Under the pieces are notes generated by a model. It worked only from the letters and a program-made list of their open reading frames with translations, was not told the DNA's origin and ran no database searches. DNA of 64,000 nt from Burkholderia sp. Bp8992 (lineage in GTDB: Bacteria; Pseudomonadota; Gammaproteobacteria; Burkholderiales; Burkholderiaceae), in the NCBI RefSeq assembly GCF_003853705.1, contig NZ_QTQI01000001.1:248001-312000 (forward strand), given 5' to 3'. Positions 36,541-64,000 of this stretch are shown piece after piece; within the stretch, counting starts at the first letter, position 1; every line of letters begins with the position of its first letter. The translations under genes and the position numbers were made by a program.

Positions 36541-36734
36541 CACCGCCGCGGCGATCCCGCCCGAGGATCGCCTTCGCCGTTTGCCGTTCACCTTTCGCCG
36601 TCCGTTGCCGGACGGTTCTTTCCCGATTCCTTTCCGTTTTCAGCTTTTTGGCCGCCGGCCGCCGCGATGCGCGCAGCGCGCGACTCCGCCTGCGCGGCAC
36701 CGGCACGCCCGTCCGCCCGCGCTTGTCGCGCCGA

Positions 36735-36767
36735 ATGGTCCGTACCATTCGACACGTGCGTGCCATA
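36735..36767 (+). promoter_or_regulatory. Shared regulatory block, site E (upstream of gspI)
   Basis: AATGGTCCGTACC (36734-36746), 13 bases, then GTGCCATA (36760-36767). Same order and spacing as the blocks before the first TPR gene and the adhesin. It lies about 90 bases before the gspI start inside a 319-base non-coding gap, whose remaining sequence shows nothing else. Confidence 0.65.
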
Positions 36768-36859
36768 CGTCGCGCTTAACGTCCGTGCACGGCGTCCGTC
36801 GCGCCGGCGACGCGGCCTGCGCCGCGGTTTGACCGCCGGACGCCGACCCATCGACAAGA

Positions 36860-37303
36860 ATGATGCAGGTCATGTGCGACGACAGAACCGACTACCACCG
36901 CCAGGCGCGCCGCGGATTGCGCACGGCGCATGCGCCGCAACGGGGATTCACGCTGATCGAGGTGCTGATCGCGCTGGCGATCGTGGCCGTGGCGCTGGGC
37001 GCCGTGATGCGCGCGATCGGCGCGCTCGCGTCGGATACCGACATGGCGCGCATGCGGCTGCTCGCGCTATGGAGTGCCGACAATGCGCTCGGCGAAATCC
37101 GCATCGCGTCGACCTGGCCGTCCGTCGGCACGAACACGTTCGCGTGCCCGCAGGGCCGCTACCGGTTCGTGTGCCGCCAGTCGGTGGCCGCGCTGCCGAG
37201 CCCGCTCGTGCGGCGCGTGACGGTGAGCGTGTATCCGTCCGCGGCGAGCCGCAACGTGCTCGCCGAAGTCGTCACGGTGATCCAGAATGAAGCGCGCCAG
37301 TGA
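36860..37303 (+). CDS. gspI: Type II secretion minor pseudopilin GspI
   Basis: A 147-residue prepilin-like protein. The basic leader ends at the peptidase site QRGFTLIEVLIALAIVAVAL, with the glycine-phenylalanine cleavage point and conserved E5, followed by a single membrane helix. The C-terminal domain (MARMRLLALWSADNALGEIR) matches GspI rather than GspG/H/J. Minor pseudopilins I, J and K form the tip that primes the secretion pseudopilus. Overlaps gspJ by 17 bases. gspK, D, E, G, L and M are not in the window. Confidence 0.88.
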   Translation: MMQVMCDDRTDYHRQARRGLRTAHAPQRGFTLIEVLIALAIVAVALGAVMRAIGALASDTDMARMRLLALWSADNALGEIRIASTWPSVGTNTFACPQGRYRFVCRQSVAALPSPLVRRVTVSVYPSAASRNVLAEVVTVIQNEARQ

Positions 37304-37955
37304 ACCGCGCGCGGCGGCGCGTGCGCCGCAACGGGGCTTCACGCTGATCGAGATGCTGGTCGCGATCGCGCTGCTCGCCGTGATCGCGTTGCTGTCGTGG
37401 CGCGGCCTCGATGCGACGATGCGCGGTCGCGACGATATCGCGTCGAATCTGGCGCAAACGCGTCTGCTCGGCCGCTATTTCTCCCAGTTGCAGTTCGACC
37501 TGACCAACCTCGTGACGGCCGACGAAGTGTTCGGGCCGCCGCTGCGCATTCGCCCGAACGAACTCGTGATGGTGCGCCATCTCGGCGTCGGCGGCGGGCC
37601 GGCGCAGATGCAGGTCGTGCGCTACCAGCTCAAGGGGCGCGAGCTCGTGCGCAGCGCGTCGCAGCCGCTCGCGTCGCTGGCCGACGTGGAGGACGCGCTG
37701 CAGCACATGGACGCGTTCGCGCGCGTGGTGGTCAGCAACGATGCGCGGACGATGCAGCTTTCCGTGTGGATTCCGCCGGGCGGATGGACGACGAGCCAGG
37801 CCGTCATCGAGCAGAGCTATGCGCAGTTTCTCGCGCAGCACGGCGTCAGCAATCTCACGTCGCTCGGCATGCCGCTGCCGCGCGGCGTGCGCTTCGCGGT
37901 CACGATGGGCGCGCCGGCAGTCGAGTACGTGCGGACGATCCCGATCGGCCAGTGA
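37287..37955 (+). CDS. gspJ: Type II secretion minor pseudopilin GspJ
   Basis: A 222-residue minor pseudopilin with leader cleavage site PQRGFTLIEMLVAIALLAVI. The following LLSWRGLDATMRGRDDIASN and QFDLTNLVTADEVFGPPLRI segments are typical for GspJ. It would sit in the inner membrane and assemble with GspI and GspK at the pseudopilus tip. Translationally coupled to gspI. The next gene is a TPR protein rather than gspK, which is unusual for a T2SS operon. Confidence 0.88.
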   Translation: MKRASEPRAAARAPQRGFTLIEMLVAIALLAVIALLSWRGLDATMRGRDDIASNLAQTRLLGRYFSQLQFDLTNLVTADEVFGPPLRIRPNELVMVRHLGVGGGPAQMQVVRYQLKGRELVRSASQPLASLADVEDALQHMDAFARVVVSNDARTMQLSVWIPPGGWTTSQAVIEQSYAQFLAQHGVSNLTSLGMPLPRGVRFAVTMGAPAVEYVRTIPIGQ

Positions 37956-38006
37956 CGGCGGCACGGGTTGTTCGACGCGCGGAACGTGTTCCGTCCCCCG
38001 GACAAA

Positions 38007-38038
38007 ATGGTCCGTAACTTTCGTCATACATCTGTTAT
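38007..38038 (+). promoter_or_regulatory. Shared regulatory block, site A, overlapping a Pho-box-like repeat
   Basis: AATGGTCCGTAAC (38006-38018), 13 bases, then CTGTTAT (38032-38038). The stretch TCGTCAT-ACAT-CTGTTAT (38021-38038) resembles a PhoB box, two 7-base half-sites 11 bases apart with 5/7 and 6/7 matches to CTGTCAT. It lies about 95 bases before the first TPR gene. Confidence 0.65.
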
Positions 38039-38133
38039 TGCCCGTCCGTTAGTCTCGTGGCGAGCATGACCGCCGCGACCGGTTCCATCGAGCCGTGTCA
38101 GCGGCGGCATCGGCAAACGGGAAGGGGGCGAAC

Positions 38134-40356
38134 GTGACGGTCGAGCACCGGCATGATGCACACGCGGGCGCGTCGGGACTCGACGCGCGCGGGCAACGGC
38201 AATCGGCGGCGATCCTGAGCCGCGCACAAAACTGGCACGGTGCAGGACGGTTCGACGACGCGGCGCGCGAATATCTCGCCGTGCTCGAGCAGGAACCGGA
38301 CAATCCCCAGGCATTGCACCTGTACGGCGTGCTGCAGTTCCAGCGGGGCGCGGCCGACGATGCCGAAGCGTTGTTGCGCCGGTCGATCGCGATCGCACCC
38401 GGCACGCGCGTCCTGTCGGATCTCGGCGCGATCGCCGGCGAGCGCGGCCGCATTGGCGAGGCGCTCGAGCATTTCGCGGCCGCGCTGCGTACGACACCCG
38501 ACGACGTGCAGACGCTCGTGCGCCGCGGCAACACGCTGCTCGGATTGCGTCGTTACGACGATGCACTGGCGTCGTTCGACCGCGCGCTCGCGGTGTCGCC
38601 GCTGGTACTCGATGCGCTCTGCAATCGCGGCAGCGCGCTGCGTGCGCTGCGCCGCTTCGACGATGCGCTCGATACCTACGATCGCGCGCTGATGGTCGAC
38701 CCGCGTTCGTTCGAATCGTGGTTCAACCGCGGCCTCGTGCTGCGCGAACTGCAGCGGCCGGCCGATGCGCTGCAGTGCTTCGAGCGCGCCAGCGCGATCC
38801 GTCCCGGCATGGCCGCGATCATGGCCGAGCGCGGCCGCACGCTGATCGATCTCGATCGGCCGGGCGAGGCGCTCGACGCGTTCAACGAAGCGATCGCGGC
38901 CGATCCGGCGCGGCTCGACGTGCTCTACAACAGCGCGGTCGCGCTCGAACGGCTCGGCCGCGCGGACGAAGCGCTGGCCCGCTGCGAGCGCGTGCTGGCG
39001 TTCGATCCGGATCATGTCCGCGCCCATGCGAGTCGCGGCAACGCGCTGCTGCAGCTCAAGCGCCACGACGAAGCCCTGGCCGCCTATGCGCGCGCGCTGG
39101 CGCTCGATCCGCACTCGACGGAGACGTTGTGCAACCGCGGTACCGCGTTGCGTTACCTGAAGCGCTTCGACGAAGCACTGGCCAGCTACGACGCCGCGCT
39201 TGCGCGCGACGCACGGTTCGCCGAGGCCTGGACCAACCGCAGCAACGTATTGCAGGACCTGCATCGCTACGACGAAGCGATGGCGTCGCTCGACCGTGCG
39301 CTCGCGCTGCGTCCCGATCACGCGACGAACTGGCTCAACCGCGGCAACCTGCATTTCGAAACGGCGCGCACGGACGACGCGCTCGCCGCGTACGACCGCG
39401 CGATCGCACTGCATCCCGACTATGCCGAAGCGCATTTCGCGCGCGCGTCGCTGTATCTGATCGAAGGCGATTTCGCGCGCGGCTGGCCCGAGTACGAATG
39501 GCGGCTGCGCGATGCGCAGCTTGCGCGGCACTACCGGCCGTTCACGCAGCCGGCGTGGCAGGGCGACACGCCGCTCGACGGCCGGACGGTGCTGATTCAT
39601 GCGGAACAAGGGTTCGGCGACACGCTGCAGTTCTGCCGTTATGTGCCGCTGGTGGCCGCGCGCGGTGCGCGGGTCGTGTTCGAGGTGCAGCCGCCGCTGC
39701 GCGCGCTGATGGCGTCGCTGCCCGGTGCGGTCGACGTGATCGCGCGCGGCGAGCCGCTGCCGGCGTTCGACTGCCAGGCGCCGCTGCTGAGCCTGCCGCA
39801 TGCGTTTCGCACCGACGAAGCCACCATTCCGCAAGCCGGCGCCTATCTGCATGCCGACCCGCAGCGCACGCGCGAGTGGGAAGCGCTGCTCGGCGAGCGG
39901 CGCCGGCCGCGGATCGGGATCGCGTGGGCCGGCAATCCGGAGCATCGCAACGATCACAACCGGTCGATCGATTTCGCGCGGCTCGCGCCGCTGTTCGATC
40001 TCGACGTCGACTGGATCAGCCTGCAAAAACCCGTGCGCGAACGCGACGCCGTGCTGCTCACGCAGGCGCCGGTGCTTCGCGTCGACGACGAACTTGGCGA
40101 CTTCGCGGACACGGCCGCGCTGATCGGCGCGCTGGATCTCGTGATCGCGGTCGATTCCGCGGTCGCGCACCTGGCGGGCGCGCTGGGCCGCGCGGTCTGG
40201 GTGCTGCTGCCAGATCCGGCGGAGTGGCGCTGGATGCGGACCCGCGGCGACAGCCCGTGGTACCCGTCCGCGCGGCTGTTCCGGCAGGCGGCGCCGGGCG
40301 ACTGGAAGAGCGCGATCGACGCGGTGCGTGCCGCGCTCGCGCCGATGGCACGTTAG
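38134..40356 (+). CDS. TPR protein with C-terminal GT9-like glycosyltransferase domain, paralogue 1
   Basis: About 740 residues. Residues 40-480 are a long run of tetratricopeptide repeats (repeated RRYDDALASFDRALAVSP-type units). From about 490 a glycosyltransferase-like domain begins with AEQGFGDTLQFCRYVPLVAA and includes IGIAWAGNPEHRNDHNRSID and VDSAVAHLAGALGRAVWVLL, the last resembling the D-(S/T)-x3-H-x-A-ALG-P motif of heptosyltransferases (GT9). TPR plus GT proteins of this layout glycosylate proteins in SPINDLY/OGT and autotransporter-heptosyltransferase systems. Start taken at GTG 38134 after AAGGGGGCG; GTG 38095 is the alternative. First of three tandem paralogues upstream of the giant adhesin. 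Confidence 0.85.
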   Translation: MTVEHRHDAHAGASGLDARGQRQSAAILSRAQNWHGAGRFDDAAREYLAVLEQEPDNPQALHLYGVLQFQRGAADDAEALLRRSIAIAPGTRVLSDLGAIAGERGRIGEALEHFAAALRTTPDDVQTLVRRGNTLLGLRRYDDALASFDRALAVSPLVLDALCNRGSALRALRRFDDALDTYDRALMVDPRSFESWFNRGLVLRELQRPADALQCFERASAIRPGMAAIMAERGRTLIDLDRPGEALDAFNEAIAADPARLDVLYNSAVALERLGRADEALARCERVLAFDPDHVRAHASRGNALLQLKRHDEALAAYARALALDPHSTETLCNRGTALRYLKRFDEALASYDAALARDARFAEAWTNRSNVLQDLHRYDEAMASLDRALALRPDHATNWLNRGNLHFETARTDDALAAYDRAIALHPDYAEAHFARASLYLIEGDFARGWPEYEWRLRDAQLARHYRPFTQPAWQGDTPLDGRTVLIHAEQGFGDTLQFCRYVPLVAARGARVVFEVQPPLRALMASLPGAVDVIARGEPLPAFDCQAPLLSLPHAFRTDEATIPQAGAYLHADPQRTREWEALLGERRRPRIGIAWAGNPEHRNDHNRSIDFARLAPLFDLDVDWISLQKPVRERDAVLLTQAPVLRVDDELGDFADTAALIGALDLVIAVDSAVAHLAGALGRAVWVLLPDPAEWRWMRTRGDSPWYPSARLFRQAAPGDWKSAIDAVRAALAPMAR

Positions 40357-40398
40357 ACACGACACGCGACACGAACAGCGACCAGTGGGGGCCACACG

Positions 40399-42642
40399 AT
40401 GACACCGAACGGGGAAGGGACGACACTCGCGAGCGCGCCGGTCGCGCCGGATCGCCGTCCGCCCGACACCGCGCAACTCGAACGGCTGCTCCTGCGCGCG
40501 CGCAAGGCACACCACGACGGCGCGCTGCAGCATGCGGAACACGCGTATACCGAATTGCTGACGCTCGATCCCGAGCATCCGGAGGCGCTGCACCTGCTCG
40601 GCGCGGTGCGATTCCAGCAAGGGCGCCTCGACGATGCCGAGCCGCTGATGCGGCGCTCGATCGAGCGCCGGCCGGTGCCGCTCGCGCTCGCGAATTATGC
40701 GGCGGTGCTGACGGGGCTCGGGCGCGAGCACGACGCGCTCACGCGGCTCGACGAAGCACTCGCGATCAATCCGGTCCATCAGCGCGTGCTGTTCCAGCGC
40801 GCGGGCCTGCTCGCGCAACTCGCGCGGTACGACGATGCGTGCGCGGTCTACGATCGGCTGCTCGAATTGACGCCCGGTTTTGCCGACGGCTATGTGAAGC
40901 GCAGCGACATGCTGCGCGCGCTCGGCCGTCACGACGACGCGCTCGCCGATTGCGACCGGTCGATCGCGCTGGCCGGGCGTTCGTTCGACGCGATGCGCGC
41001 GCGTGGCCTCGCGCTGCGCGAACTCGGCCGCTTTCGCGAGGCGGTCGACAGTTACGGCTACGCGCTCGCACAGAAACCGGGCAGCATCGATGTGCTGTTC
41101 CTGCGCGGCGTCGCGTATCTCGACCTGAGCGATCCGGAACGCGCGCTGGCGGATTTCAATGCGGCGATCGCGGCGAGCCCGACCTTCGTCGATGCGATCT
41201 TCAACAGCTCGATCGCGCTCGAACAGCTCGGCCGGCACGACGAGGCGCTCGTGCGCTGCGACCGCGTGCTCGCGATCGATCCGCGCCACGCGCGGGCGCT
41301 CGCGAACCGCGGCAATGCGGCCAGCCACCTGGAGCGCTATCGCGACGCGGTCGACAGCTATGCGCGCGCGCTCGACGTGGAACCGCGCAGCCCCGGCGTG
41401 CTGTGCAACTACGCGAGCGCGCTGATGCGCGTCGAGCGTCACGACGATGCGCGCGACATGTGCGACCGCGCGCTGGCGCTCGACGCCGGCTACGTGCCCG
41501 CCTGGTTCACGCGCGGCCGCGTGCAGCTCGAGACGCACCGCTACGCGGCCGCGCTCGACGACTTCGCGCGCGTGATCGACGCGACGCCACACGACAAGCT
41601 CGCGCACTTTCACAAGGGCAATGCGTTGCGCGCGTTGCGGCACCACGATGCCGCGCGGCAGGCGTATGCGGATGCGATCGATATCGATCCCGACTACGTG
41701 CTCGCGCACTGCATGCGCGCGTTCCTGTGTTTGTCGATCGGCGATTTCGAAGCCGGCTGGGCCGAGTACGAATGGCGCTGGCGCGACACGCAGCTCGATG
41801 CGAGCCGGCGCACGTTCGCGCAGCCGCGCTGGACGCACGGGATGCCGCTCGACGGCAAGACGATCCTGCTGTACCCGGAACAGGGGCTCGGCGACACGCT
41901 GCAGTTCTGCCGCTATGTCCCGCTCGTGAAAGCGCTCGGCGCGCGCATCGTGCTCGAAGCGCCGGTCGAACTGAAGACGCTGTTCGCGACGCTCGACGGC
42001 GTCGATACGCTCGTCGCGCGCGGCGAGCCGCTGCCGCCGTTCGACCTGCATTGCCCGCTGCTGAGCCTGCCGCTCGAATTCCGCACGGACCTGGCGTCGA
42101 TTCCCGCCGGCGTGCCGTATCTCGCGGCCGACCCCGTACGTGTCGCGCAATGGCGCGAACGGCTTGGCGCCGCGACGCGGCCGCGTATCGGCCTCGTGTG
42201 GTCCGGCAACCCGCTGCACCTGAACGACCGCAACCGCTCGATGACGCTCGCGGATCTGCTGCCGCTGTTCGACGACCGTTACGAGTGGATCAGCCTGCAG
42301 AAGGTGGTCCGCGACGAGGACCGTCCGGTGCTCGACGCGAGCGCGGTGCGCTTCGTCGGCGACGACCTTGCCGACTTCGCCGATACGGCGGCGCTGACTG
42401 CGCTGATGGACGGCATCGTCAGCGTCGATACGTCCGTCGCGCACCTTGCCGGCGCGCTCGGCCGGCCGCTTGCGCTGATGATTCCCCATACGCCCGATTT
42501 CCGCTGGCTGCTCGAACGCGACGACAGCCCGTGGTATCCGTCGGCGCGGCTGTTCCGCCAGCCCGAGGGCGGGCAGTGGGCGCCCGTCGTCGAGCGGATC
42601 GCGGCCGGGTTGCCAATGCTCGTCGGCGGAGGCGCGCAATGA
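40399..42642 (+). CDS. TPR protein with GT9-like domain, paralogue 2
   Basis: A 747-residue paralogue of the gene before it, with the same two-part layout: TPR units over about residues 40-480, then PEQGLGDTLQFCRYVPLVKA (from about 492), IGLVWSGNPLHLNDRNRSMT and VDTSVAHLAGALGRPLALMI (about 675). The invariant histidine and GNP loop are kept, so it is likely active. It starts at ATG 43 bases after paralogue 1 and overlaps paralogue 3 by ATGA. The predicted location is the cytoplasm; no signal peptide is seen. Acceptor and donor are unknown; the neighbouring adhesin is the obvious candidate acceptor. Confidence 0.87.
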   Translation: MTPNGEGTTLASAPVAPDRRPPDTAQLERLLLRARKAHHDGALQHAEHAYTELLTLDPEHPEALHLLGAVRFQQGRLDDAEPLMRRSIERRPVPLALANYAAVLTGLGREHDALTRLDEALAINPVHQRVLFQRAGLLAQLARYDDACAVYDRLLELTPGFADGYVKRSDMLRALGRHDDALADCDRSIALAGRSFDAMRARGLALRELGRFREAVDSYGYALAQKPGSIDVLFLRGVAYLDLSDPERALADFNAAIAASPTFVDAIFNSSIALEQLGRHDEALVRCDRVLAIDPRHARALANRGNAASHLERYRDAVDSYARALDVEPRSPGVLCNYASALMRVERHDDARDMCDRALALDAGYVPAWFTRGRVQLETHRYAAALDDFARVIDATPHDKLAHFHKGNALRALRHHDAARQAYADAIDIDPDYVLAHCMRAFLCLSIGDFEAGWAEYEWRWRDTQLDASRRTFAQPRWTHGMPLDGKTILLYPEQGLGDTLQFCRYVPLVKALGARIVLEAPVELKTLFATLDGVDTLVARGEPLPPFDLHCPLLSLPLEFRTDLASIPAGVPYLAADPVRVAQWRERLGAATRPRIGLVWSGNPLHLNDRNRSMTLADLLPLFDDRYEWISLQKVVRDEDRPVLDASAVRFVGDDLADFADTAALTALMDGIVSVDTSVAHLAGALGRPLALMIPHTPDFRWLLERDDSPWYPSARLFRQPEGGQWAPVVERIAAGLPMLVGGGAQ

Positions 42643-44906
42643 GTGCGCGCCGCGCGGCTGCGCCGCTGGCGGGCGCCGTACCGGGCGCTGCGGCCGTGCC
42701 GCTGCAAGCGGTGCTCGCCGATGCGCTGCGCCAGGCGCGCACGCGTCTCGAACAGCGCGACTTCGCCGGGGCCGGACGGCTCTACGAAGGCGTGCTGGCG
42801 ATGGCGCCCGATCATGTCGAGGCGCTGCACCTGCTGGGCCTCGTGCACCTGCAGCTCGGCGATCCCGCACGGGCCGAGCCGCTGATCGCGCGCTCGATGA
42901 CGCTCGGATTGACCCAGCCGTGGAATCTGGCGAACCACGCGGCGGCACTGACCGGTGTCGGCCGTCATCGCGACGCACTCGCGCTCGCCGATCGCGCACT
43001 CGCGGCCGATCCGGACCATGCGCCGTCGCATGCGGCGCGCGGCGATGCGCTGCTTGCGCTCGGGCAATACGACGCGGCGTTGGCCACTTACGATCGGGCG
43101 CTCGTGCGCGAACCGGCGCATGCAATGGCGTGGCGCAAGCGCGGCGAGACGTTGCGCCGGCTCGAGCGGCCCGCTGACGCGCTGATCAGCATCGAGCGCG
43201 CGTTGCGGATCGACCCGAACGATGCGACCGCGAACATCGAGCGCGGGCATGCGCTGCGCGCGCTCGGCCATCGCGAGCAGGCGCTGCACAGCTATCAGCT
43301 CGCGATGGTCGTGCGCGGCAAGACGCCGGAGCTCGTCTACGCGTGCGGCGTCGTGATGACCGAACTGGGTCGCCCGGCCGACGCGCTCGCGTGTCTCGAC
43401 GAAGGGCTCGCACGTCTGCCGAAGGACGAGCAGTTGCTGTACGCGAGTTGCGTTGCGCTGGATTTGCTACATGCCCGCGACGAATTGCTGAAGCGCTGCG
43501 ACCGGCTGCTCGCGCTGAATCGCGGCAACGTCGCCGCGTGGGTCGGGCGCGGCAACGCGCTGCTCGGGCTCGAACGTCACGCGGAAGCCGCGCAGGCGTA
43601 TGCCGAAGCGCTGGCACGCAATCCCGGCGATATCGACGCGCGCCGCAATCGCGCGGCTGCGCTGCGCGCGCTCGGCCGGTTCGACGACGCGCTCGCCGAT
43701 TACGACGCGGCGCTGGCGCTGACGGGCCCGCACGCGGAACTGCATTACAACCGCGCGCTCGCGCTGCAGCAGCTCGGCCGCTACGACGACGCGCTCGCGA
43801 GCCACGCGGCGGCGGCGGCCGCGCCGGCGGACACGGCGCAGGCTTTGTTCACGCGTGCGCTTGCACGCCAGCACCTCGGCGCCGACGACGCGGCGCTGAC
43901 CGATTACGCCGACGCATGCCGGCGCGATCCGAATCATGGCGCCGCGCGCCGCTCGGAGGCGTTCTGCCGGCTGCTGACGGGCGATTTCGACGCGGGCTGG
44001 CGGCAGCACGAGGCGCGCTGGGAGGCGGCCGACGTGATGCTGCACCGGCGTCATGCGGACCGGCCGCGATGGACCGGCGACGAACCGCTCGCGGGTCGCA
44101 CGCTGCTGCTGCATGCGGAGCAGGGTTATGGCGACACGCTGCAGTTCTGCCGCTACGCGAACCTGGCGCACGACGCGGGCGCGACCGTGATCGTCGAGGC
44201 GCCGGCCGCGCTCGGCGAGCTGCTCGGCACGCTGCGCGGCGTGAGCCGCGTCGTCACCGAAGGGCAGCCTATGCCGGCGTTCGACCTGCACTGTCCGCTG
44301 ATGAGCCTGCCGTACGCGTTCCGCACGACGCTCGATACGGTGCCGGCCGACGTACCGTACTTGCGCGCCGATGTGTCGCGGCGTGCCGCGTGGGCACGGC
44401 GCATCGACGCGATCGCGCCGCCGGGCCGGTTGCGCGTCGGGCTCGCGTGGTCCGGCAACCCGCGCCACTCGAACGACGAGAACCGCTCGATACCGTTCGC
44501 CATGCTCGCACCGCTCGTCGCGAGCGACGCGCTCGACGCGACGTTCGTGAGCCTGCAGTCGCAGGTTCGCGCGCGCGATGCCGACGCGTTCGCCGCGAGC
44601 GGCGTGCTGTCGTTCGCGGACGCGTTGCACGACTTCTCCGAAACGGCGGCGCTGGTCGACACGCTGGATCTCGTGATCAGCGTCGACACGTCGGTCGCGC
44701 ATCTGGCCGGCGCGCTCGGGCGGCCGGTCTGGGTGCTGCTGCCGCGCGTGCCGGACTGGCGCTGGCTGCTCGAACGCGACGACAGCCCGTGGTATCCGGC
44801 CGCGACGCTGTTCCGGCAGACGCGGCCGGGAGACTGGCCGGCGGTCATCGGCCGCGTGGTCGACGCGCTCGGCAAGGCACGCCGCGACCGCCCCGCGGCG
44901 GCGTGA
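42639..44906 (+). CDS. TPR protein with GT9-like domain, paralogue 3
   Basis: A 755-residue paralogue. TPR units over about 30-480 are more diverged in the N-terminal third (MSARRAAAPLAGAVPGAAAV lead). The catalytic part has AEQGYGDTLQFCRYANLAHD, VGLAWSGNPRHSNDENRSIP and VDTSVAHLAGALGRPVWVLL. It shares an ATGA overlap with paralogue 2 and is followed by site B and the adhesin. Three non-identical copies suggest different sugar or acceptor specificities, or sequential steps. The gene order glycosyltransferases then adhesin resembles adhesin-modifying loci, but no modification is shown by sequence. Confidence 0.87.
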   Translation: MSARRAAAPLAGAVPGAAAVPLQAVLADALRQARTRLEQRDFAGAGRLYEGVLAMAPDHVEALHLLGLVHLQLGDPARAEPLIARSMTLGLTQPWNLANHAAALTGVGRHRDALALADRALAADPDHAPSHAARGDALLALGQYDAALATYDRALVREPAHAMAWRKRGETLRRLERPADALISIERALRIDPNDATANIERGHALRALGHREQALHSYQLAMVVRGKTPELVYACGVVMTELGRPADALACLDEGLARLPKDEQLLYASCVALDLLHARDELLKRCDRLLALNRGNVAAWVGRGNALLGLERHAEAAQAYAEALARNPGDIDARRNRAAALRALGRFDDALADYDAALALTGPHAELHYNRALALQQLGRYDDALASHAAAAAAPADTAQALFTRALARQHLGADDAALTDYADACRRDPNHGAARRSEAFCRLLTGDFDAGWRQHEARWEAADVMLHRRHADRPRWTGDEPLAGRTLLLHAEQGYGDTLQFCRYANLAHDAGATVIVEAPAALGELLGTLRGVSRVVTEGQPMPAFDLHCPLMSLPYAFRTTLDTVPADVPYLRADVSRRAAWARRIDAIAPPGRLRVGLAWSGNPRHSNDENRSIPFAMLAPLVASDALDATFVSLQSQVRARDADAFAASGVLSFADALHDFSETAALVDTLDLVISVDTSVAHLAGALGRPVWVLLPRVPDWRWLLERDDSPWYPAATLFRQTRPGDWPAVIGRVVDALGKARRDRPAAA

Positions 44907-44927: not shown

Positions 44928-44984
44928 TACGGACCTTTTCACGGCGGCCGGAATGGTCCGTAACAGTCGCCACGTCGCTGCCAT
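44928..44984 (+). promoter_or_regulatory. Shared regulatory block, site B (adhesin promoter) with inverted half-site
   Basis: GAATGGTCCGTAAC (44951-44964), 13 bases, then CTGCCATTCG from 44978. Upstream, TACGGACC (44928-44935) is the inverted copy of GGTCCGTA, so this site carries two opposed half-sites 21 bases apart. It lies about 110 bases before the adhesin ATG at 45092, which supports that start over the ATG at 44996. Confidence 0.7.
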
Positions 44985-45091
44985 TCGCGCTTCGTATGGT
45001 CTTCGGATTCCAGCGGCCCGTTTCGGGCGCAACGACATGTGCGGTGCCGGACCGGCGCCGCGCGCAAATTCCTAGCATCGGGGTGGCAAGA

Positions 45092-58150: not shown

Positions 58151-58184
58151 CGGTCTGGCTCTCTGTAGTCAGCGTGTCGACGAA

Positions 58185-59477
58185 TTAACGACCGACTACG
58201 GTACCCGTGCAGACGCTCGTGTTGCCGATGTCGAGGTTGAAGCCGCTCGCGTTGCTCAGGAAGTCGTTCGAGATGGCCGTCTGGTAGTTCGACGGAACCG
58301 TGTCGAAGCCGTTGCCATGCACGATCGACGCAAAGCTGGCGTTCGTGTAGTGGCTGTTCAGGAAGTCATGAACGGCCGTCTTGACGGTCGCATCCTTGTA
58401 GCACTGGCTCAGGATGATCTGGCTGGTGCCGGAAACCGGGTAGCCCGACACCGGATTGCCGGCGGCCGGCACCCATTGCGAAGGATCCGAGGCTCCGGCC
58501 TTGAGCGCCGGCGGCTTGACCGAACCGAGTGCCGTCGAAGCATTTGCATACGTCGGTGCGTAGTAGATGCCATTCGTATTGTTCACGAGGCTGGCCACCG
58601 GCAGTTGCAGCGCGCCGGCCGGCGTCACGACCGTGCTCGACGGGGCGAGGAACGTGTTCGTATAGTCGGGGCTCAGGTACGCGACGGCGGCACCGGTGGA
58701 GGACGACAGCGCATTGCGCACGCCGCCGCTGCCCGACGCGCCGGTGAAGTTCGACGGCACGACGCCGCCGGGGAACGAAGCCGCGAACGTCAGCGAATCG
58801 ACGAACGTTACGCCCGTGGCCGTGTTGCCTGCCTTACAGACGGCTGCCAGATGGCGGGTCAGCAGTTCCGTCGTGCCGCTGCCGTCCGAGCGGTAGATGA
58901 CCTTGATCGGTGCGTTCGTCGTATAGGCTGCGGTCGTTTCCGGATTGATGACCTGGTTCCAGTTCGTCAGCTTGCCCGAGAAGATGCCGCACAGATCGTC
59001 GTCGTTCAGCGCGATGCTATGCGCTTGACCCGGCGTCGTCTGCGGCGTCGTCGTGCTCGTGACGGCCGGGCCGTTGACGACCGGCACCGTGATCGGCGTG
59101 ACGATGTACGGAATCTGGATCAGCGGGCCGTTGGTCGCGCCGAGGCCGGCCTTGTACGACGTGAGCTGGGCGGTCGACAGCGCCGCATCGCTGTTCGCGA
59201 AGTGGACCGTGCCCGTGACCGTCGAGCCGAAGTACGTCGGCTGGTTGTTCAGGAATGCGTTCTGGCCGGCGCCCGAGCCAACCGAGTAGTACGTGAACGA
59301 GCCTTCGGCCGTGCCGAACAGGCCGATTTCGGTCGCGGTGTTGCCGATCGCGCCGATGGTCGGGGCGACGAGCGACGAACCGCCGCCGTGGATGTCCGCG
59401 GCCATTGCGGCCGTGGCGCCCAGACCGGAAACAACGAGAGCGAGGACTTGACAGATCTTGCGCTTGCTGGATTTCAT
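58185..59477 (-). CDS. PstS/DING-type secreted phosphate-binding protein
   Basis: A 430-residue exported protein. The signal peptide MKSSKRKICQVLALVVSGLG ends in AMAA before DIHGGGSSLVAPTI, the start typical of PstS-like solute-binding proteins. Later segments are LCGIFSGKLTNWNQVINPET, VIYRSDGSGTTELLTRHLA and VSGYPVSGTSQIILSQCY; the SGT and R-S-D-G-S-G-T elements form the phosphate site. No pstCAB genes adjoin it, so it is not an ordinary ABC partner. DING/LapC-type relatives are T2SS substrates in Pseudomonas. Start chosen at the ATG at 59477 after AAGGAAA; a longer frame to 59591 adds non-signal sequence. Confidence 0.85.
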   Translation of the reverse strand: MKSSKRKICQVLALVVSGLGATAAMAADIHGGGSSLVAPTIGAIGNTATEIGLFGTAEGSFTYYSVGSGAGQNAFLNNQPTYFGSTVTGTVHFANSDAALSTAQLTSYKAGLGATNGPLIQIPYIVTPITVPVVNGPAVTSTTTPQTTPGQAHSIALNDDDLCGIFSGKLTNWNQVINPETTAAYTTNAPIKVIYRSDGSGTTELLTRHLAAVCKAGNTATGVTFVDSLTFAASFPGGVVPSNFTGASGSGGVRNALSSSTGAAVAYLSPDYTNTFLAPSSTVVTPAGALQLPVASLVNNTNGIYYAPTYANASTALGSVKPPALKAGASDPSQWVPAAGNPVSGYPVSGTSQIILSQCYKDATVKTAVHDFLNSHYTNASFASIVHGNGFDTVPSNYQTAISNDFLSNASGFNLDIGNTSVCTGTVVGR

Positions 59478-59594
59478 GAGAAATTTCCTTGAACGAAGAT
59501 AAACGGGAACCCCTGCTGTTGCGGTTGGAATACTTATGGACCGCCGCGTAAATGTAGGGGGTAATTCGAATGACGCGTGTGAATTTTTCATAAC

Positions 59595-59628
59595 GAATGG
59601 TGCGTAACATTTTTATCGAGCAAGCCAT
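59595..59628 (+). promoter_or_regulatory. Shared regulatory block, site D
   Basis: CGAATGGTGCGTAAC (59594-59608, one change from GGTCCGTAAC), 13 bases, then AAGCCAT (59622-59628) followed by TGCG. Orientation points to gspF, 514 bases downstream; in reverse it would sit about 120 bases before the pstS-like gene. Confidence 0.55.
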
Positions 59629-59802: not shown

Positions 59803-59836
59803 AAGACGATTTCGTGGCGGATGTTACGGAACATTC
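59803..59836 (-). promoter_or_regulatory. Shared regulatory block, site C
   Basis: On the minus strand GAATGTTCCGTAACATCCGC (59836-59817) matches site B over GAATG-TCCGTAAC and the following CGCCACG. The downstream element is less conserved (TCGTCTT, 59809-59803). It points towards the pstS-like gene, about 330 bases away. Confidence 0.5.
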
Positions 59837-60141
59837 TGCACGTCGATGAATATCTTCCGTTTTGATGTATTTCTTCCGTTTTTTTGCGCGAATCTGTAAA
59901 TGGAAGGTCGATGAGGGGCGCGAGTATTTAATGTATGACCGGTTAATTGATTGGGTAAGAATGAAATCGTTTTTGCGTTATAAGAATAACGGCGACGGGT
60001 AATAAGACCCGCCAAAAAAGGTAGCCCAACATCCGTCACAAATTTGCGCCGGTTCGCTCCGTAGTCTTCCCCGGCGACTCCGTCCGGCAACCTGCGCGAC
60101 GTCATCGGAAGCAGTCGCGCACGTGACAGGAGAGCATCGGC

Positions 60142-61359
60142 ATGTCGGCATTCCGCTACGAAGCGATCGATCCCACCGGCCGCACGCTGAAAGGCGTGCT
60201 CGAAGCCGACAGCGCGCGCGCCGGCCGCAGCCATCTGCGCACGCAAGGTCTCACGCCGCTCGTCGTCGAACTGGCCGCGCAGCGCCTGCACGGCGAGCGC
60301 CATCAACGTTTGTCGCTCGGCCGCAAGCTGTCGCAGCGCGAGCAGGCGATTATCACGCGCCAGCTCGCGAGCCTGCTGGTCGCGGGTTTGCCGCTCGACG
60401 AATCGCTGTCGGTGCTGAGCGAGCAGGCCGAGCGCGAATACGTGCGCGAGCTGATGGCGTCGATCCGGGCGGAAGTCGTCGGCGGCCATTCGTTCGCGAA
60501 TGCGTTGAGCCAGCATCCGCGCGATTTCCCCGAGATCTATCGAGCGCTCGTCGCGGCCGGCGAGCACACCGGCAAGCTCGGCATCGTGCTGTCGCGTCTC
60601 GCCGACTACATCGAACAAAGCAACGCGCTGAAACAGAAGATCCTGCTGGCGTTCACCTATCCGGGCATCGTCACGCTGATCGCGTTCGGCATCGTCACGT
60701 TCCTGCTGAGCTACGTGGTGCCGCAGGTTGCGAACGTGTTCACCAGCACCAAGCAACAGCTGCCGACACTGACGGTCGTGATGCTCGCGCTATCGGACTT
60801 CGTGCGGCACTGGTGGTGGGCATCGCTCGCGGCGACGGTCGCGATCGCCTATGCGATCCGCAAGGTGCTGTCGCGCGATGCGCCGCGGCTCAGGTTCGAC
60901 ACGTGGGTGCTCACCGCGCCGCTCGCCGGCAAGCTCGTGCGCGGCTACAACACGGTGCGCTTCGCGAGCACGCTCGGCATTCTCACCGCGGCCGGCGTAC
61001 CGATCCTGCGCGCCTTGCAGGCGGCCGGCGAGACGTTGTCGAACCGCGCGATGCGCGCGAACGTCGACGACGCGATCGTCCGCGTGCGCGAAGGCTCGGC
61101 GCTGTCACGCGCGCTGGCGCATACGAAGACGTTTCCGCCGGTACTCGTGCACCTGATCCGCTCGGGCGAGGCGACCGGCGACGTGACGACGATGCTCGAT
61201 CGCGCATCCGAAGGCGAATCGCGCGAGCTGGAACGCCGCACGATGTTCCTGACGAGCCTGCTCGAACCGCTGTTGATTCTAGCGATGGGCGGCGTGGTGC
61301 TCGTGATCGTGCTCGCGGTGATGATGCCGATCATCGAGCTGAACAACATGGTGCAGTGA
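60142..61359 (+). CDS. gspF: Type II secretion inner-membrane platform protein GspF
   Basis: A 405-residue polytopic protein of the T2SS/T4P GspF-PilC family, the inner-membrane platform that contacts the GspE ATPase. It opens MSAFRYEAIDPTGRTLKGVL, a family signature, and has the duplicated domain LTRQLASLLVAGLPLDESLS-like (ITRQLASLLVAGLPLDESLS) and FASTLGILTAAGVPILRALQ. Membrane helices lie near 170, 220 and 375. The ATG follows AGGAGAGCATCGGC. Closest in layout to GspF rather than PilC. It stands apart from gspI/gspJ by 22 kb of adhesin genes. Confidence 0.93.
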   Translation: MSAFRYEAIDPTGRTLKGVLEADSARAGRSHLRTQGLTPLVVELAAQRLHGERHQRLSLGRKLSQREQAIITRQLASLLVAGLPLDESLSVLSEQAEREYVRELMASIRAEVVGGHSFANALSQHPRDFPEIYRALVAAGEHTGKLGIVLSRLADYIEQSNALKQKILLAFTYPGIVTLIAFGIVTFLLSYVVPQVANVFTSTKQQLPTLTVVMLALSDFVRHWWWASLAATVAIAYAIRKVLSRDAPRLRFDTWVLTAPLAGKLVRGYNTVRFASTLGILTAAGVPILRALQAAGETLSNRAMRANVDDAIVRVREGSALSRALAHTKTFPPVLVHLIRSGEATGDVTTMLDRASEGESRELERRTMFLTSLLEPLLILAMGGVVLVIVLAVMMPIIELNNMVQ

Positions 61360-61367
61360 TGCGCGGC

Positions 61368-61814
61368 TCAGCGCACGAACGCGTTGGCCTTCTCTGCGGC
61401 GGGCAGCGCGATTTCGCGTTGCAGGCCGTTGCGGTCGACGACGATCGAGCGCGCGCGAACCTCGGCGAGCTTCGCGGCTTCGCCGATCGCCGCACCGAGC
61501 GACACGACGCGCGATGTCTCACCGCCGACGCTGACGATCGCCGCCGCACGGCGCGCGTCGAAGGCGAGCACGCCGAGCAACTGGATGGCGTCGTGGCCGT
61601 CGTCGGGTTTCGCGCCGAACAGCCGCGCGCCGGCCGCAACGTCGATCGGCGCGGGTGGCGGTGCAAGCGCCGCGACCGGCGCATCGGCGGCGCTCAATAC
61701 GCGCACGGCCCACAGCGACACGGCAGCGAGCGCCGCGGCGGCGGCGAGCGTTGCCGCGAGCGGTACGAGATCGGCGCGGGACGGCGCGATGCGAAGCAGG
61801 TCGAACGGTTTCAT
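61368..61814 (-). CDS. GspC-like type II secretion protein (HxcP-type)
   Basis: A 148-residue bitopic inner-membrane protein: short cytoplasmic N-terminus (MKPFDLLRIAPSRADLVPLA), one membrane helix (about 20-38), an Ala/Pro linker and a small periplasmic homology region (IQLLGVLAFDARRAAAIVSV, SLGAAIGEAAKLAEVRARSI, RNGLQREIALP). This fits GspC, which contacts the secretin. It lacks a PDZ domain, as in the short Hxc-type forms. Oddly it is on the opposite strand to gspF and gspH, 8 bases from the gspF stop. The call rests on pattern and context. Confidence 0.7.
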   Translation of the reverse strand: MKPFDLLRIAPSRADLVPLAATLAAAAALAAVSLWAVRVLSAADAPVAALAPPPAPIDVAAGARLFGAKPDDGHDAIQLLGVLAFDARRAAAIVSVGGETSRVVSLGAAIGEAAKLAEVRARSIVVDRNGLQREIALPAAEKANAFVR

Positions 61815-61874
61815 GGCGTCACGTCGATGCGATGGACAGAAGACGTTTCCATTCTTTGCCGCGAGGGTGAATGC

Positions 61875-62402
61875 ATGATGACGGGCCTCAACGAAACCCG
61901 AACGTCGTACGCTGGCCAGTCGCGTGGACACGCGCGTCGCCGCACGCAACGCGGCTTCACGCTGCTGGAGATGCTCGTCGTGCTCGTGATCGTCGGGCTG
62001 CTGGTCGCGGTCGTGACGCTCGCGCCGTCGCGCAATCGCCGCACCGATCTGGCGGAGGAGGCGCAGCGCCTCGCGAACCTGCTCGAATCGGCCGGCGACG
62101 AGGCGCAGGTGCGATCGATGCCGATCGCATGGCAACCGGTCGGCGGCGGCTATCGCTTCGTGCAGCGCACCGACAGCGGCAGCTGGGCGCCGATGACCGA
62201 CGATCTCTATCGCGCACGCCGCTGGGGCACCGAGGTAACGGGCGTGTCGGTGCGCTACACCGGCGGCGGCGAAGTGCCGTCGCGCGTGGTGCTCGGCAGC
62301 GAAAGCATCGACGTGCCCGTGACGATCACGCTGTGGTCCGGCGACGTGCGGATGGCCGTCGTCGGCACGGGCATCGGCAGCTTCGTCGTGCGCCGGCCTT
62401 GA
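61875..62402 (+). CDS. gspH: Type II secretion minor pseudopilin GspH
   Basis: A 175-residue prepilin-like protein with a 26-residue basic leader and the cleavage site TQRGFTLLEMLVVLVIVGLL. The mature part (DLAEEAQRLANLLESAGDEA, IAWQPVGGGYRFVQRTDSGS) matches GspH. It would incorporate into the pseudopilus shaft near the tip. Two adjacent ATGs (61875, 61878) are possible starts. Head-to-head with the gspC-like gene, 60 bases apart. Confidence 0.85.
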   Translation: MMTGLNETRTSYAGQSRGHARRRTQRGFTLLEMLVVLVIVGLLVAVVTLAPSRNRRTDLAEEAQRLANLLESAGDEAQVRSMPIAWQPVGGGYRFVQRTDSGSWAPMTDDLYRARRWGTEVTGVSVRYTGGGEVPSRVVLGSESIDVPVTITLWSGDVRMAVVGTGIGSFVVRRP

Positions 62403-62585
62403 GCGACGCGTGGCGCCGCGCGCGAACACGATGGATGAACACGTCTGGATTGAATCGCGCCGCTGCATGCTTCACCTGACTGTCACACAGCCCGCTCACA
62501 ATCTGTCGTTCGCTTGCGACGGAGCCGCTCCCGGGGGCGCGCGCTTCGGCACGCGGCGTGCAACTCCACTTCCGTCCAGGGATTC

Positions 62586-63332
62586 ATGACTCGTTCACGG
62601 GCGCCGACCGGTGTCCTGGCGCTCGTCGCGTGGCTCGCGCTGGTCGTGCTGTGCATGCGCGGCGTGCACGCGCAGGAGACCGGTTCCATCGGCCGCCAGC
62701 CGGGCCGCGCGGTGCATTTCGATCTGCCCGCGCAGCCGCTCGCGAAGACGTTGCAGGATTTCGCGCGGCTCACCGAGCTGATCGTGCTCGCGCCGGCGCC
62801 GCTGCTCGACGGGCGCACGAGTGCGCCGGTCCAGGGCGATTTCACGCCGCGCGACGCGCTCGAGCGGATGCTGGCCGGAACGGGGTTGCGTGCGGAATTC
62901 TCGCGTCCGGACGAAGCGATCATCGTCGCGCAGCCGGCCGCCGAGACGCCGCCCGCGACGGCCGACACGCCGGCGGATCCGGCGCTGCCGATCGACGGGA
63001 TCGGCGATTCGGGCGATCGGCGCGCGTTCGCGGGCCTGCTGCAGGCGCATCTGATCGATGCGCTGTGCGCGCAGCCGGCAGCCGTGCCGGGCAGCTATCG
63101 ACTCGTCGCGCAGGTGCGCATCGACAACAGGGGGGCGGTGGTGGCGGTCAACATGGTGGCATCGAGCGGTTCGGCCGCCCGCGACGCGGCGGTGATGCGC
63201 GCGCTGCGCGCGCTGAAGCTGGACGATGGGCCGCCGGCAGACTTGCCGCAGCCGGTCACGATCCTGCTGCGCCCGGCCGGCAACGGCGTGCATTTCCGTT
63301 GCCCGGCGCCGCAGCCGGCCGTCCGGGGCTAG
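62586..63332 (+). CDS. STN-domain / TonB C-terminal signalling protein, VreA-like
   Basis: A 248-residue exported protein. After a signal peptide ending MRGVHAQ comes a secretin/TonB short N-terminal domain (about 40-115): VHFDLPAQPLAKTLQDFARL, TSAPVQGDFTPRDALERMLA, GTGLRAEFSR. A proline-rich linker leads to a TonB C-terminal-like domain (about 170-235, VRIDNRGAVVAVNMVASSGS, AVMRALRALKL). There is no outer-membrane barrel, unlike FecA or FpvA. STN domains of signalling receptors touch FecR-type anti-sigma factors; VreA of P. aeruginosa PUMA3 is likewise short and barrel-less. The ECF sigma gene follows 6 bases later. Start at ATG 62586 after CAGGGATTC. Confidence 0.85.
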   Translation: MTRSRAPTGVLALVAWLALVVLCMRGVHAQETGSIGRQPGRAVHFDLPAQPLAKTLQDFARLTELIVLAPAPLLDGRTSAPVQGDFTPRDALERMLAGTGLRAEFSRPDEAIIVAQPAAETPPATADTPADPALPIDGIGDSGDRRAFAGLLQAHLIDALCAQPAAVPGSYRLVAQVRIDNRGAVVAVNMVASSGSAARDAAVMRALRALKLDDGPPADLPQPVTILLRPAGNGVHFRCPAPQPAVRG

Positions 63333-63338
63333 GCCGCC

Positions 63339-63887
63339 ATGTCCGACAGCAACCGCTCCGGGCTCAGGCATCTGCTGGCGACGCGCTACGCGTACCTGGT
63401 CAGGCGGCTCGAACGCGTGACGGGGTCGAAGGACGGCGCCGCCGATGCGCTGCACGAAACCTGGCTGCGCCTCGAGAACGCGAACGTCTCCACGCAGGTG
63501 ACGAACGCGGACGCCTATATACTCGGGATGGCGAACAATGTCGCGATCGACCAGCATCGGCGCGAACGGCGGCATCTGCACGACGACGACGTCGAGACGC
63601 TGCTGGAAATGCCCGACGAACTCGCCGATCCCGAGCGCATCGTCGCGGCACGCCGCAAGGTCGAGACGCTGAAGGACGTGCTGCGCGGCCTGCCGCCTCG
63701 GCGCCGCGCGATCCTGCTGGCCGCCCGCGTGGACGGCCTGCTGAACCGCGAGATCGCCGAGCATTTCGGTATTTCGCTGCGGCTCGTCGAAAGCGAGTTG
63801 AGCGCGGCGATGAAGTACTGCCTGCAGCGCATGCAGGAAGACGGTGATTCGTACACGGGCACGCGAGGCGGCCCGCGCAAATTTTGA
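63339..63887 (+). CDS. ECF sigma factor of the iron-starvation (FecI) type, VreI-like
   Basis: A 182-residue sigma-70 family regulator. Region 2 is seen in GAADALHETWLRLENANV and YILGMANNVAIDQHRRERRH; region 4 in LRGLPPRRRAILLAARVDGL and EIAEHFGISLRLVESELSAA. This spacing and the R-R-R-A-I-L-L motif are typical of FecI/PvdS-like factors controlled by FecR proteins. The gene lies between an STN-domain gene and a fecR gene, the standard cell-surface-signalling trio. It is the likely reader of the shared block found at five sites in this region. Confidence 0.9.
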   Translation: MSDSNRSGLRHLLATRYAYLVRRLERVTGSKDGAADALHETWLRLENANVSTQVTNADAYILGMANNVAIDQHRRERRHLHDDDVETLLEMPDELADPERIVAARRKVETLKDVLRGLPPRRRAILLAARVDGLLNREIAEHFGISLRLVESELSAAMKYCLQRMQEDGDSYTGTRGGPRKF

Positions 63888-63898
63888 GCATCCGGACG

Positions 63899-64000
63899 AT
63901 GACGAAAGCCCAGGCCCAACCTGCCCACGACGAACTCGACGAAGCGAGTGCGTGGCTGCTGCGTCTGCGCTCGGGAGAAGCGGGCCAGGCCGAAGCCGAT
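63899..64000 (+). CDS. FecR-family anti-sigma factor, N-terminal part
   Basis: The start ATG at 63899 follows the sigma stop by 11 bases. The 34 visible residues contain ELDEASAWLLRLRSGEAGQA, the N-terminal sigma-binding motif of FecR proteins (A-x-W-hydrophobic-x-R-L-x-S/G-E). The rest lies beyond the window. It would be an inner-membrane anti-sigma factor sensing the STN protein. Confidence 0.85.
   Translation, partial: MTKAQAQPAHDELDEASAWLLRLRSGEAGQAEAD

What the first reader, a model, noticed from the sequence alone, without database searches (positions are those of the whole stretch)
36541..64000. PUMA3-like surface-signalling, secretion and adhesin locus in Burkholderia
The sequence shows, within 27 kb, T2SS genes, a 4,252-residue TpsA exoprotein, a PstS/DING protein and an STN protein / ECF sigma / FecR trio. 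From family knowledge, P. aeruginosa PUMA3 links VreA-VreI-VreR to the Hxc T2SS and to PdtA, a phosphate-regulated TpsA of nearly the same size. I infer a Burkholderia counterpart with different gene order and with three added glycosyltransferase-like genes.
Basis: partly seen in the sequence, partly recalled or inferred. Interest (0 to 1): 0.85.

Follow-up and report, generated by a model that had tools for sequence, protein, structure and literature searches.

The report
Burkholderia PUMA3 adhesin and secretion locus
A gene cluster in a Burkholderia, counterpart of one known in Pseudomonas, that appears to switch on a giant surface protein, its likely sugar-adding enzymes and a phosphate-binding secreted protein, with a secretion machine that seems to lack its own motor and outer gate.

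Summary
Of 12 complete window proteins there, 9 match the P. aeruginosa PA7 PUMA3 locus; the three TPR enzymes do not. The STN protein has VreA's STN plus TonB-like build. The sigma's best match in 3 of 3 Pseudomonas genomes lies beside VreA, and the reverse search agrees in 6 of 6 cluster-bearing Burkholderia. The homology is in print: Llamas et al. 2009 describe it for B. vietnamiensis. New here: (1) the window's T2SS is partial (C, F, H, I, J). In 35 relatives gspD is seen at the locus in 2 and gspE in 3, one a fragment, yet the kept genes are under purifying selection; gspG is lost and its leader sits on gspH. (2) A 16-bp palindrome marks the promoters; 27 of 31 genome-wide sites in 8 relatives lie in the cluster. 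(3) The three TPR proteins end in a GT9 heptosyltransferase-like domain. Best reading: a phosphate/ECF-controlled module whose T2SS parts may work with the housekeeping engine (inferred).

The parts
36734..36749 (+). 16-bp palindrome AATGGTCCGTACCATT upstream of gspI
   Evidence: 0 mismatches to AATGKTNCGNAMCATT; 20 sites assigned to gspI in 35 relatives
36860..37303 (+). gspI, T2SS minor pseudopilin
   Evidence: TIGR01707 61.1 bits, cut-off 44.35; T2SSI
37287..37955 (+). gspJ-like pseudopilin
   Evidence: prepilin N-terminus over cut-off; TIGR01711 33.6 bits, below cut-off 64.85; 31% match in the PA7 locus
38006..38058 (+). promoter block: palindrome (1 mismatch), pho-box-like repeat TCGTCATACATCTGTTAT (38021-38038), CGTCCGTTAGTCT
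   Evidence: pho-like repeat kept at 3 mismatches in 21 of 27 gspJ-GT1 spacers, window included; pho-box count in the window is not above chance
38095..40356 (+). TPR plus GT9-like glycosyltransferase 1
   Evidence: TPR; Glyco_transf_9 21.3 bits, cut-off 22
40399..42642 (+). TPR plus GT9-like glycosyltransferase 2
   Evidence: Glyco_transf_9 21.6 bits, cut-off 22; AlphaFold2 pLDDT 89 whole, 86 for the C-terminal domain; nearest PDB folds SPINDLY/OGT (whole) and heptosyltransferases/TibC (domain)
42639..44906 (+). TPR plus GT9-like glycosyltransferase 3
   Evidence: Glyco_transf_9 23.4 bits, over cut-off 22
44952..44967 (+). palindrome upstream of tpsA
   Evidence: 1 mismatch
44996..57850 (+). 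TpsA exoprotein, PdtA homologue
   Evidence: TIGR01901 at 206-287, DUF3739 at 4077-4185; PA7 PdtA 33% at both ends, 26% in the middle, DUF3739 there too
58185..59591 (-). DING/PstS-type phosphate-binding protein, LapA-like (likely start Met39 at 59477)
   Evidence: PDB DING chain 2q9t E 9e-49 against classical PstS E 8e-4; PA7 counterpart 36%
59596..59611 (-). palindrome proximal to the DING gene
   Evidence: 0 mismatches
59820..59835 (-). second palindrome between the DING gene and gspF
   Evidence: 1 mismatch
60142..61359 (+). gspF
   Evidence: TIGR02120 555 bits, cut-off 424
61368..61814 (-). short gspC (148 aa)
   Evidence: T2SSC 31.5 bits, cut-off 27; the matching PA7 ORF is 143 aa, 37% over 49 residues
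61875..62402 (+). gspH carrying the leader of the lost gspG
   Evidence: TIGR01708 82.3 bits, cut-off 80; leader matches G001 GspG
62514..63332 (+). VreA: STN plus TonB-like domain
   Evidence: STN 91-138 and TonB_2 172-240; PA7 VreA 37%
63339..63887 (+). VreI ECF sigma factor
   Evidence: Sigma70 regions 2 and 4; reciprocal best hit
63884..64000 (+). VreR, FecR-type anti-sigma (start only, cut by window end)
   Evidence: 95% to the FecR of G026 over 12% of it

Best explanation
The locus is the Burkholderia form of the Pseudomonas PUMA3 (VreA-VreI-VreR) regulon. Shown: homology of the trio, TpsA, DING protein and five T2SS genes with P. aeruginosa PA7, recurrence of the gene set in relatives, and a cluster-specific promoter element. 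Inferred: under low phosphate PhoB and a released sigma VreI switch on the operons. The cytoplasmic TPR-GT9 enzymes add sugar to the giant TpsA before export through a TpsB encoded downstream in relatives. The DING protein is exported by a T2SS whose own C, F, H, I, J (and K, seen downstream in most relatives) are used with the secretin and ATPase of the housekeeping T2SS, since the cluster has none.
For: 9 of 12 complete window proteins match PA7; VreA, VreR and TpsA domain content equal in PA7; sigma reciprocal best hits 3 of 3 and 6 of 6, no match at E 1e-8 in 4 of 4 clusterless genomes. A sigma hit lies beside each of the 30 VreA loci returned. TpsB of relative G026 is 48% identical to the PA7 one. 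In 35 relatives gspD is seen at the locus in 2, gspE in 3; in the 9 genomes tested whose locus lacks gspE the nearest GspE is the housekeeping one, 67% to PA7 HxcR. Median dN/dS: gspF 0.11, gspG 0.08, gspI 0.21, gspJ 0.23, gspH 0.26, gspK 0.24, gspC 0.33. Palindromes at gspI, GT1, tpsA and DING promoters.
Against: In P. aeruginosa VreA is not needed for sigma VreI activation (PMC7035377, passages), so its signalling role is open. The palindrome is not seen in the PA7 locus at 2 or fewer mismatches, and its binder is unknown. The pho-box match is weak and not above chance by count. The Burkholderia transposase/Phd protein gave no tblastn match to the PA7 locus, so it is not shown to be PhdA. 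The window's genome is not held, so its downstream genes and its housekeeping T2SS are inferred from relatives. Some relatives have further gspE-like genes besides the housekeeping one, so the partner engine is not fixed. Purifying selection does not show that the parts work in secretion.
Confidence: 0.8

Rival explanations
1. The T2SS genes are relics of a decaying Hxc system and no longer secrete anything.
For: gspD and gspE are not seen at the locus of most relatives, a 140-residue gspE piece remains in G058, gspG is lost in the window and 9 relatives that keep gspF and gspH.
Against: Remaining genes are open and under purifying selection comparable to fecR and tpsB (0.23, 0.17) in 25-30 sequences each, window included (gspG: 20).
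Confidence: 0.25
2. The trio is an ordinary iron-siderophore FecI/FecR system that happens to lie next to secretion genes.
For: Weak matches to FecA, FecI and (in a relative) FecR models, all below curated cut-offs; the STN part matches siderophore receptors in the PDB.
Against: No beta-barrel receptor; the sigma's reciprocal best hit is VreI by a wide margin; VreA-sigma adjacency in 30 of 30 loci.
Confidence: 0.03
3. The palindrome is the operator of a separate dedicated regulator, perhaps the transposase/Phd protein encoded downstream in relatives, and not part of the VreI/PhoB promoter.
For: It is a 16-bp inverted repeat while pho boxes are direct repeats; it is absent from the PA7 locus; G015 and G048, without vreAIR, also show only a short Phd-like match and have no site.
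Against: Sites are followed by CGnCAc and a second repeat about 11 bp on, as in a pho box; no transposase/Phd match was seen in the stretches read of G059 and G010, which have sites, though G010's contig ends there.
Confidence: 0.4
4. The three TPR proteins modify something other than TpsA, such as lipopolysaccharide.
For: The catalytic domain resembles LPS heptosyltransferases.
Against: They lie directly upstream of tpsA, and the domain also resembles TibC, an adhesin heptosyltransferase (TibC's role recalled).
Confidence: 0.2

Closest known systems
PUMA3 / VreA-VreI-VreR regulon of Pseudomonas aeruginosa (Llamas et al. 2009, PMC2729926; passages read)
   Same: VreA-sigma-FecR trio, hxc-like T2SS genes, DING/LapA protein, TpsA; in relatives also TpsB, ExbB-ExbD, TonB-like and the next three genes.
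   Different: Gene order; gspD and gspE not seen at the locus of most Burkholderia read; three TPR-GT9 genes without a match in the PA7 locus; palindromic promoter element; a roughly 600-aa transposase/Phd protein, with no tblastn match to the PA7 locus, where PA7 has a 201-aa ORF at the phdA place.
Burkholderia vietnamiensis PUMA3 locus (same paper)
   Different: The passages read do not mention the glycosyltransferases, the missing engine genes or the promoter palindrome; they do say only some hxc-like genes.
TibC heptosyltransferase / OGT and SPINDLY
   Same: C-terminal GT-B domain like WaaF and, less closely, TibC; TPR superhelix like OGT and SPINDLY.
   Different: Whole-protein TM-scores to OGT/SPINDLY are low (0.3-0.6) and rest mainly on the TPRs; no sequence match in the PDB at E 0.01 for the C-terminal domain; acceptor and donor unknown.
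HMW1C glycosyltransferases of two-partner systems (PMC5422565 passages; PMC3983070 listing and start of abstract)
   Same: Cytoplasmic enzyme encoded beside a TpsA.
   Different: Top folds here are GT9 and TPR proteins; HMW1C is not among the 50 hits listed by either search.

Membership tests
PUMA3 cell-surface signalling system | VreA: STN domain plus TolA/TonB-like domain, no barrel | tested here: met
   STN 91-138, TonB_2 172-240 in 272 aa; same two domains in PA7
PUMA3 cell-surface signalling system | VreI-type ECF sigma next to VreA | tested here: met
   reciprocal best hits; adjacency 30 of 30 loci
PUMA3 cell-surface signalling system | FecR-type anti-sigma after the sigma gene | tested here: met
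   start in window; G026 FecR with DUF4880 plus FecR, 42% to PA7; fecR in 31 of 35 relatives' stretches
PUMA3 cell-surface signalling system | tpsA, tpsB and exbBD association | tested here: met
   tpsA in window; tpsB in 31 of 35 relatives' stretches; tpsB and exbBD lie beyond the window and were not seen in its own genome
PUMA3 cell-surface signalling system | induction by low phosphate through PhoB and VreI | not testable with these tools
   promoter sequence only; pho-box count not above chance
Hxc type II secretion system | own secretin and ATPase (gspD, gspE) | tested here: not met
   none in the window; gspD at the locus in 2 and gspE in 3 of 35 relatives' stretches; the window's own sequence past 64 kb is unseen
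Hxc type II secretion system | C, F and minor pseudopilins related to HxcP, S, W, V | tested here: met
   GspF 52%, GspH 40%, GspI 44%, GspC 37% over 49 residues to the PA7 locus; Hxc letter names recalled
DING proteins | sequence closer to DING than to classical PstS | tested here: met
   2q9t E 9e-49 against 1ixi/35yt E 8e-4; N-terminus reads DIHGGG, not DINGGG (DINGGG recalled)
TpsA two-partner exoproteins | filamentous-haemagglutinin N-terminal secretion domain | tested here: met
   TIGR01901 58.6 bits, cut-off 29.1
FecI/FecR/FecA iron signalling | TonB-dependent barrel receptor | tested here: not met
   272-aa protein with STN and TonB_2 only
GT9 / TPR protein glycosyltransferases | GT-B domain of GT9 type behind TPRs | tested here: met
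   Foldseek 1psw TM 0.59, 3tov TM 0.63-0.65, rmsd 5-6 A, TibC TM 0.45-0.53 (query-normalised); sequence scores borderline
GT9 / TPR protein glycosyltransferases | transferase activity on a protein | not testable with these tools
   none

The most novel reading that the evidence does not exclude
This is an engine-less accessory T2SS. Keeping only the inner-membrane platform, GspC and the pseudopilus tip (H, I, J, K), and in the window and nine of the relatives read not even its own major pseudopilin, the cluster supplies a phosphate-controlled substrate-recognition cassette that plugs into the secretin, ATPase and GspG of the housekeeping T2SS. A dedicated palindromic operator switches it on together with glycosylation and display of a giant adhesin.
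Probability: 0.33. Interest if true: 0.72.

Novelty: new variant of a known kind. Interest (0 to 1): 0.48.

Why it matters
The PUMA3 counterpart itself is known, so its presence is not news. What would matter is a T2SS conserved for its tip and platform but without motor or gate: it would show that T2SS parts are exchangeable, and would give a natural system to find out which subunits choose the substrate, a long-open question (my judgement, recalled). The cluster-specific palindrome gives a concrete handle on how VreI-type promoters are recognised.

Tried and rejected
Iron-type FecI/FecR reading: rejected by reciprocal searches. TpsA secreted by the T2SS for want of a TpsB: dropped once TpsB was found downstream in relatives. 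DUF3739 as a difference from PdtA: considered when rang in 0 of 14 control genomes, dropped because PA7 PdtA has it. Classical pho-box scan of the window: 2 matches, 2.47 expected, uninformative by itself. Search for repeats of the GT1 promoter block as a 21-mer: only itself. Whether BMC Genomics 2007 (PMC2194791, passages) lists this sigma: its TBLASTN with PigD and others is said to have shown no new haem- or iron-uptake sequences in B. cenocepacia J2315; the 12 of 19 passages shown do not name this locus. Calling the transposase/Phd protein PhdA: not supported, no tblastn match to the PA7 locus. In one search only 31 relatives plus the window were used (G010, G015, G048 and G059 left out), hits needed 60% coverage and 55% identity, and sequences with an early stop in the aligned frame were dropped and not read through: 1 vreA, 1 tpsB, 6 phdA-like, 7 tpsA N-terminal; I take many of these for alignments that start upstream of the true start, untested. 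The gspF class holds one site and is not used.
Full report
Identity of the window. The sequence is Burkholderia: bases 58000-64000 match B. arboris (88%) and B. stagnalis (86%) records of 3.2-3.5 Mb, as does 36541-44990 (85% and 82%). The window's assembly is not held; the nearest held genome, G001, shares 28% of its sampled 31-mers. The species is not identified.

Observation. The TpsA is 4,284 aa from the first ATG or 4,252 aa from Met33. The T2SS genes present are C, F, H, I and J.

PUMA3 membership. To test the reading I fetched the vreA region of P. aeruginosa PA7. tblastn at E 1e-3 finds matches there for 9 of the 12 complete window proteins: VreA 37%, sigma 41%, GspF 52%, GspH 40%, GspI 44%, GspJ 31%, GspC 37% over 49 residues, the DING protein 36%, and TpsA 33% at both ends and 26% in the middle. 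The three TPR enzymes have none. Proteins of relatives G001, G026 and G058 from beyond the window edge match too: FecR 42%, GspK 32%, TpsB 48%, ExbB 52% (a DUF2341-LamG-ExbB fusion in G001), ExbD 67%, TonB-like 40% over part, and the next three ORFs 49, 46 and 55%. The relatives' transposase/Phd protein has no match. The window sigma's best match in 3 of 3 Pseudomonas genomes lies at the vreA locus of each (116, 107 and 98 bits; runners-up 66, 63 and 63). PA7 VreI finds a cluster sigma first in 6 of 6 cluster-bearing Burkholderia (113-122 bits); outside the cluster the next match is at most 46 bits where one is listed, and 4 of 4 genomes without the cluster have nothing at E 1e-8. VreA has the STN plus TonB-like build that Llamas et al. 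described, and a sigma hit lies beside the VreA hit in all 30 loci returned. The DING protein is nearer to solved DING structures than to classical PstS.

Prior knowledge. Llamas et al. 2009 (PMC2729926, passages) state that in B. [quoted passage not shown] That is this arrangement. A search for papers holding both PUMA3 and Burkholderia returned 3; I read passages of two of them and saw only the listing of the third. In the listings of the literature searches made I saw no paper about the missing engine, the TPR enzymes or the palindrome in this locus; these lists are capped and cover open papers only, so this is weak evidence of absence.

Distribution. DUF3739 proteins occur in 35 of 61 Burkholderia genomes searched. 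I read stretches of about 19-79 kb around one locus in each of these 35 and tabulated gene content by tblastn at E 1e-8. Contig ends and stretch limits mean that absences are not proven. vreA, the sigma and fecR are seen in 31 of 35, tpsB in 31, gspF in 29, gspI in 30, gspK in 30, gspG in 20, gspD in 2 (G008, G010) and gspE in 3 (those two, both at contig ends, and a 140-residue piece in G058). G010 carries three tpsA genes and two vreA-sigma-fecR sets on one contig, with a further sigma match and a gspG on another. G015 and G048 keep tpsA and tpsB, exbB and exbD, but no vreA, sigma or fecR match was found at E 1e-3 in what was read (one 19-kb stretch for G015). In the whole phylum sample 68 of 398 genomes matched the VreA alignment at E 1e-10, but most matches are STN domains of large receptors; short-frame VreA-type matches are listed for about 11 genomes, the list being capped.

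The partial T2SS. In the 9 genomes tested whose locus lacks gspE, the closest relative of PA7 HxcR is the housekeeping-type GspE at 67% identity, about as near as the cluster copy of G010 (68%); some genomes have further gspE-like genes at 37-54%. The retained genes are not decaying by the measure used: median pairwise dN/dS over pairs with dS 0.1-1.5 is 0.11 for gspF (30 sequences), 0.08 gspG (20), 0.21 gspI (29), 0.23 gspJ (29), 0.26 gspH (30), 0.24 gspK (28), 0.33 gspC (25), against 0.11 for the sigma, 0.23 fecR, 0.17 tpsB, 0.39 vreA and 0.36 DING (what was left out is told under Tried and rejected). gspG is absent from the window. The leader of the window's GspH matches the leader of G001's GspG, and the nucleotide alignment to G001 breaks within the shared prepilin segment, so gspG was lost by a deletion that put its leader on gspH. 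Nine relatives that keep gspF and gspH also lack gspG; the leaders of 8 of the 9 were printed and resemble the window's to varying degree, and the ninth (G023) was printed without its leader. I infer, but have not shown, that these parts work with the housekeeping secretin, ATPase and, where gspG is lost, GspG. GspC and the tip pseudopilins are the parts thought to meet the substrate (recalled).

The promoter element. Alignment of upstream regions brought out a shared 16-bp palindrome, AATGKTNCGNAMCATT. In the window it occurs 5 times with at most one mismatch, upstream of gspI, GT1, tpsA and (twice) the DING gene; a first-order Markov model of the window gives none in 30 simulated sequences. 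The pattern was drawn from these very sites, so the window count is not independent evidence; the whole-genome count is the better test. In 8 cluster-bearing genomes 27 of 31 sites lie in the cluster, and 4 clusterless genomes have 3 sites in all; the backwards control pattern gives 6 in the 12 genomes. Across the 35 genomes 107 sites lie in the stretches read: 47 assigned to DING, 21 to GT1, 20 to gspI, 12 to tpsA, 2 to GT2, 1 each to vreA and gspF, 3 unassigned; none lies inside the 22 gene probes checked, which did not include the middle of TpsA. 33 of 35 genomes have a site, the exceptions being G015 and G048. Oriented sites continue as CGnCAc and, about 11 bp on, TGnCAt, which resembles the pho box reported in sigma VreI promoters (PMC4971064, passages and one section). 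The pho-box match in the GT1 spacer is kept at 3 mismatches in 21 of 27 spacers, window included, and is at 5 mismatches in the other 6; the window count of such matches is not above chance. The PA7 locus shows no palindrome at 2 or fewer mismatches. What binds it is unknown.

The TPR enzymes. AlphaFold2 gives GT2 a mean pLDDT of 89; its nearest solved structures are SPINDLY and OGT, with low TM-scores that rest mainly on the TPRs. The C-terminal domain alone (pLDDT 86) is nearest to E. coli heptosyltransferase II, a GT9 enzyme of Veillonella, WaaC and TibC, at TM 0.45-0.65; a few unrelated folds also appear in the list. TibC's action on an adhesin is recalled. With TpsA directly downstream, I take TpsA as the likely acceptor.

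Downstream in relatives. After FecR come an 86-residue protein with only the DUF4880 domain of FecR (G001, G026), a protein of about 600 aa with a Phd-type match and, in G001 and G058, a weak DDE transposase match, TIGR03032/DUF4915 and APS kinase genes in many, then TpsB, ExbB, ExbD and a TonB-like protein.

Verdict. The new parts are the engine-less T2SS, the palindrome and the GT9-type TPR enzymes, hence new variant of a known kind and a middling interest score.

Noticed in passing
L034:11488-11754 (G001, minus) and L028 near 8400-8660 (G026): An 86-residue protein that holds only the DUF4880 domain of FecR, just after vreR: a possible stand-alone anti-sigma (only the G001 copy was scanned).
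   Followed up: partly
L028:10057-11886, L034:8727-10508: A roughly 600-aa protein with Phd-type and weak DDE_Tnp_1/IS4 matches between vreR and tpsB, seen in most relatives read: looks like a domesticated transposase.
   Followed up: partly
L028:13831-15715: TIGR03032/DUF4915 and APS-kinase genes next to tpsB in many but not all relatives; a link to sulfation of the exoprotein is conceivable.
   Followed up: no
L029-L032 (G010): Three tpsA genes and two vreA-sigma-fecR sets in a 74-kb contig; of the three, only the tpsA next to the TPR enzymes has a palindrome (relaxed pattern AAWGKTNCGNAMCWTT) in its upstream region.
   Followed up: partly
window 61875-61960: GspH with the leader of the lost GspG; similar leaders in 8 of 9 gspG-less relatives whose gspH was printed, the ninth printed without its leader.
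   Followed up: yes
window 9681-9739 and 18226-18321: SECIS element and selenocysteine tRNA, pointing to a selenoprotein with its decoding genes.
   Followed up: no
window 24206-26260: LuxR-type regulator with autoinducer-binding domain and neighbours that look like the cepR/cepI quorum-sensing pair (names recalled).
   Followed up: no
window 23258-23315 minus: Betaproteobacteria toxic small RNA, Rfam RF02278.
   Followed up: no
alignment A3: Two cysteines are invariant in the TonB-like domain of seven VreA proteins, suggesting a disulfide.
   Followed up: no
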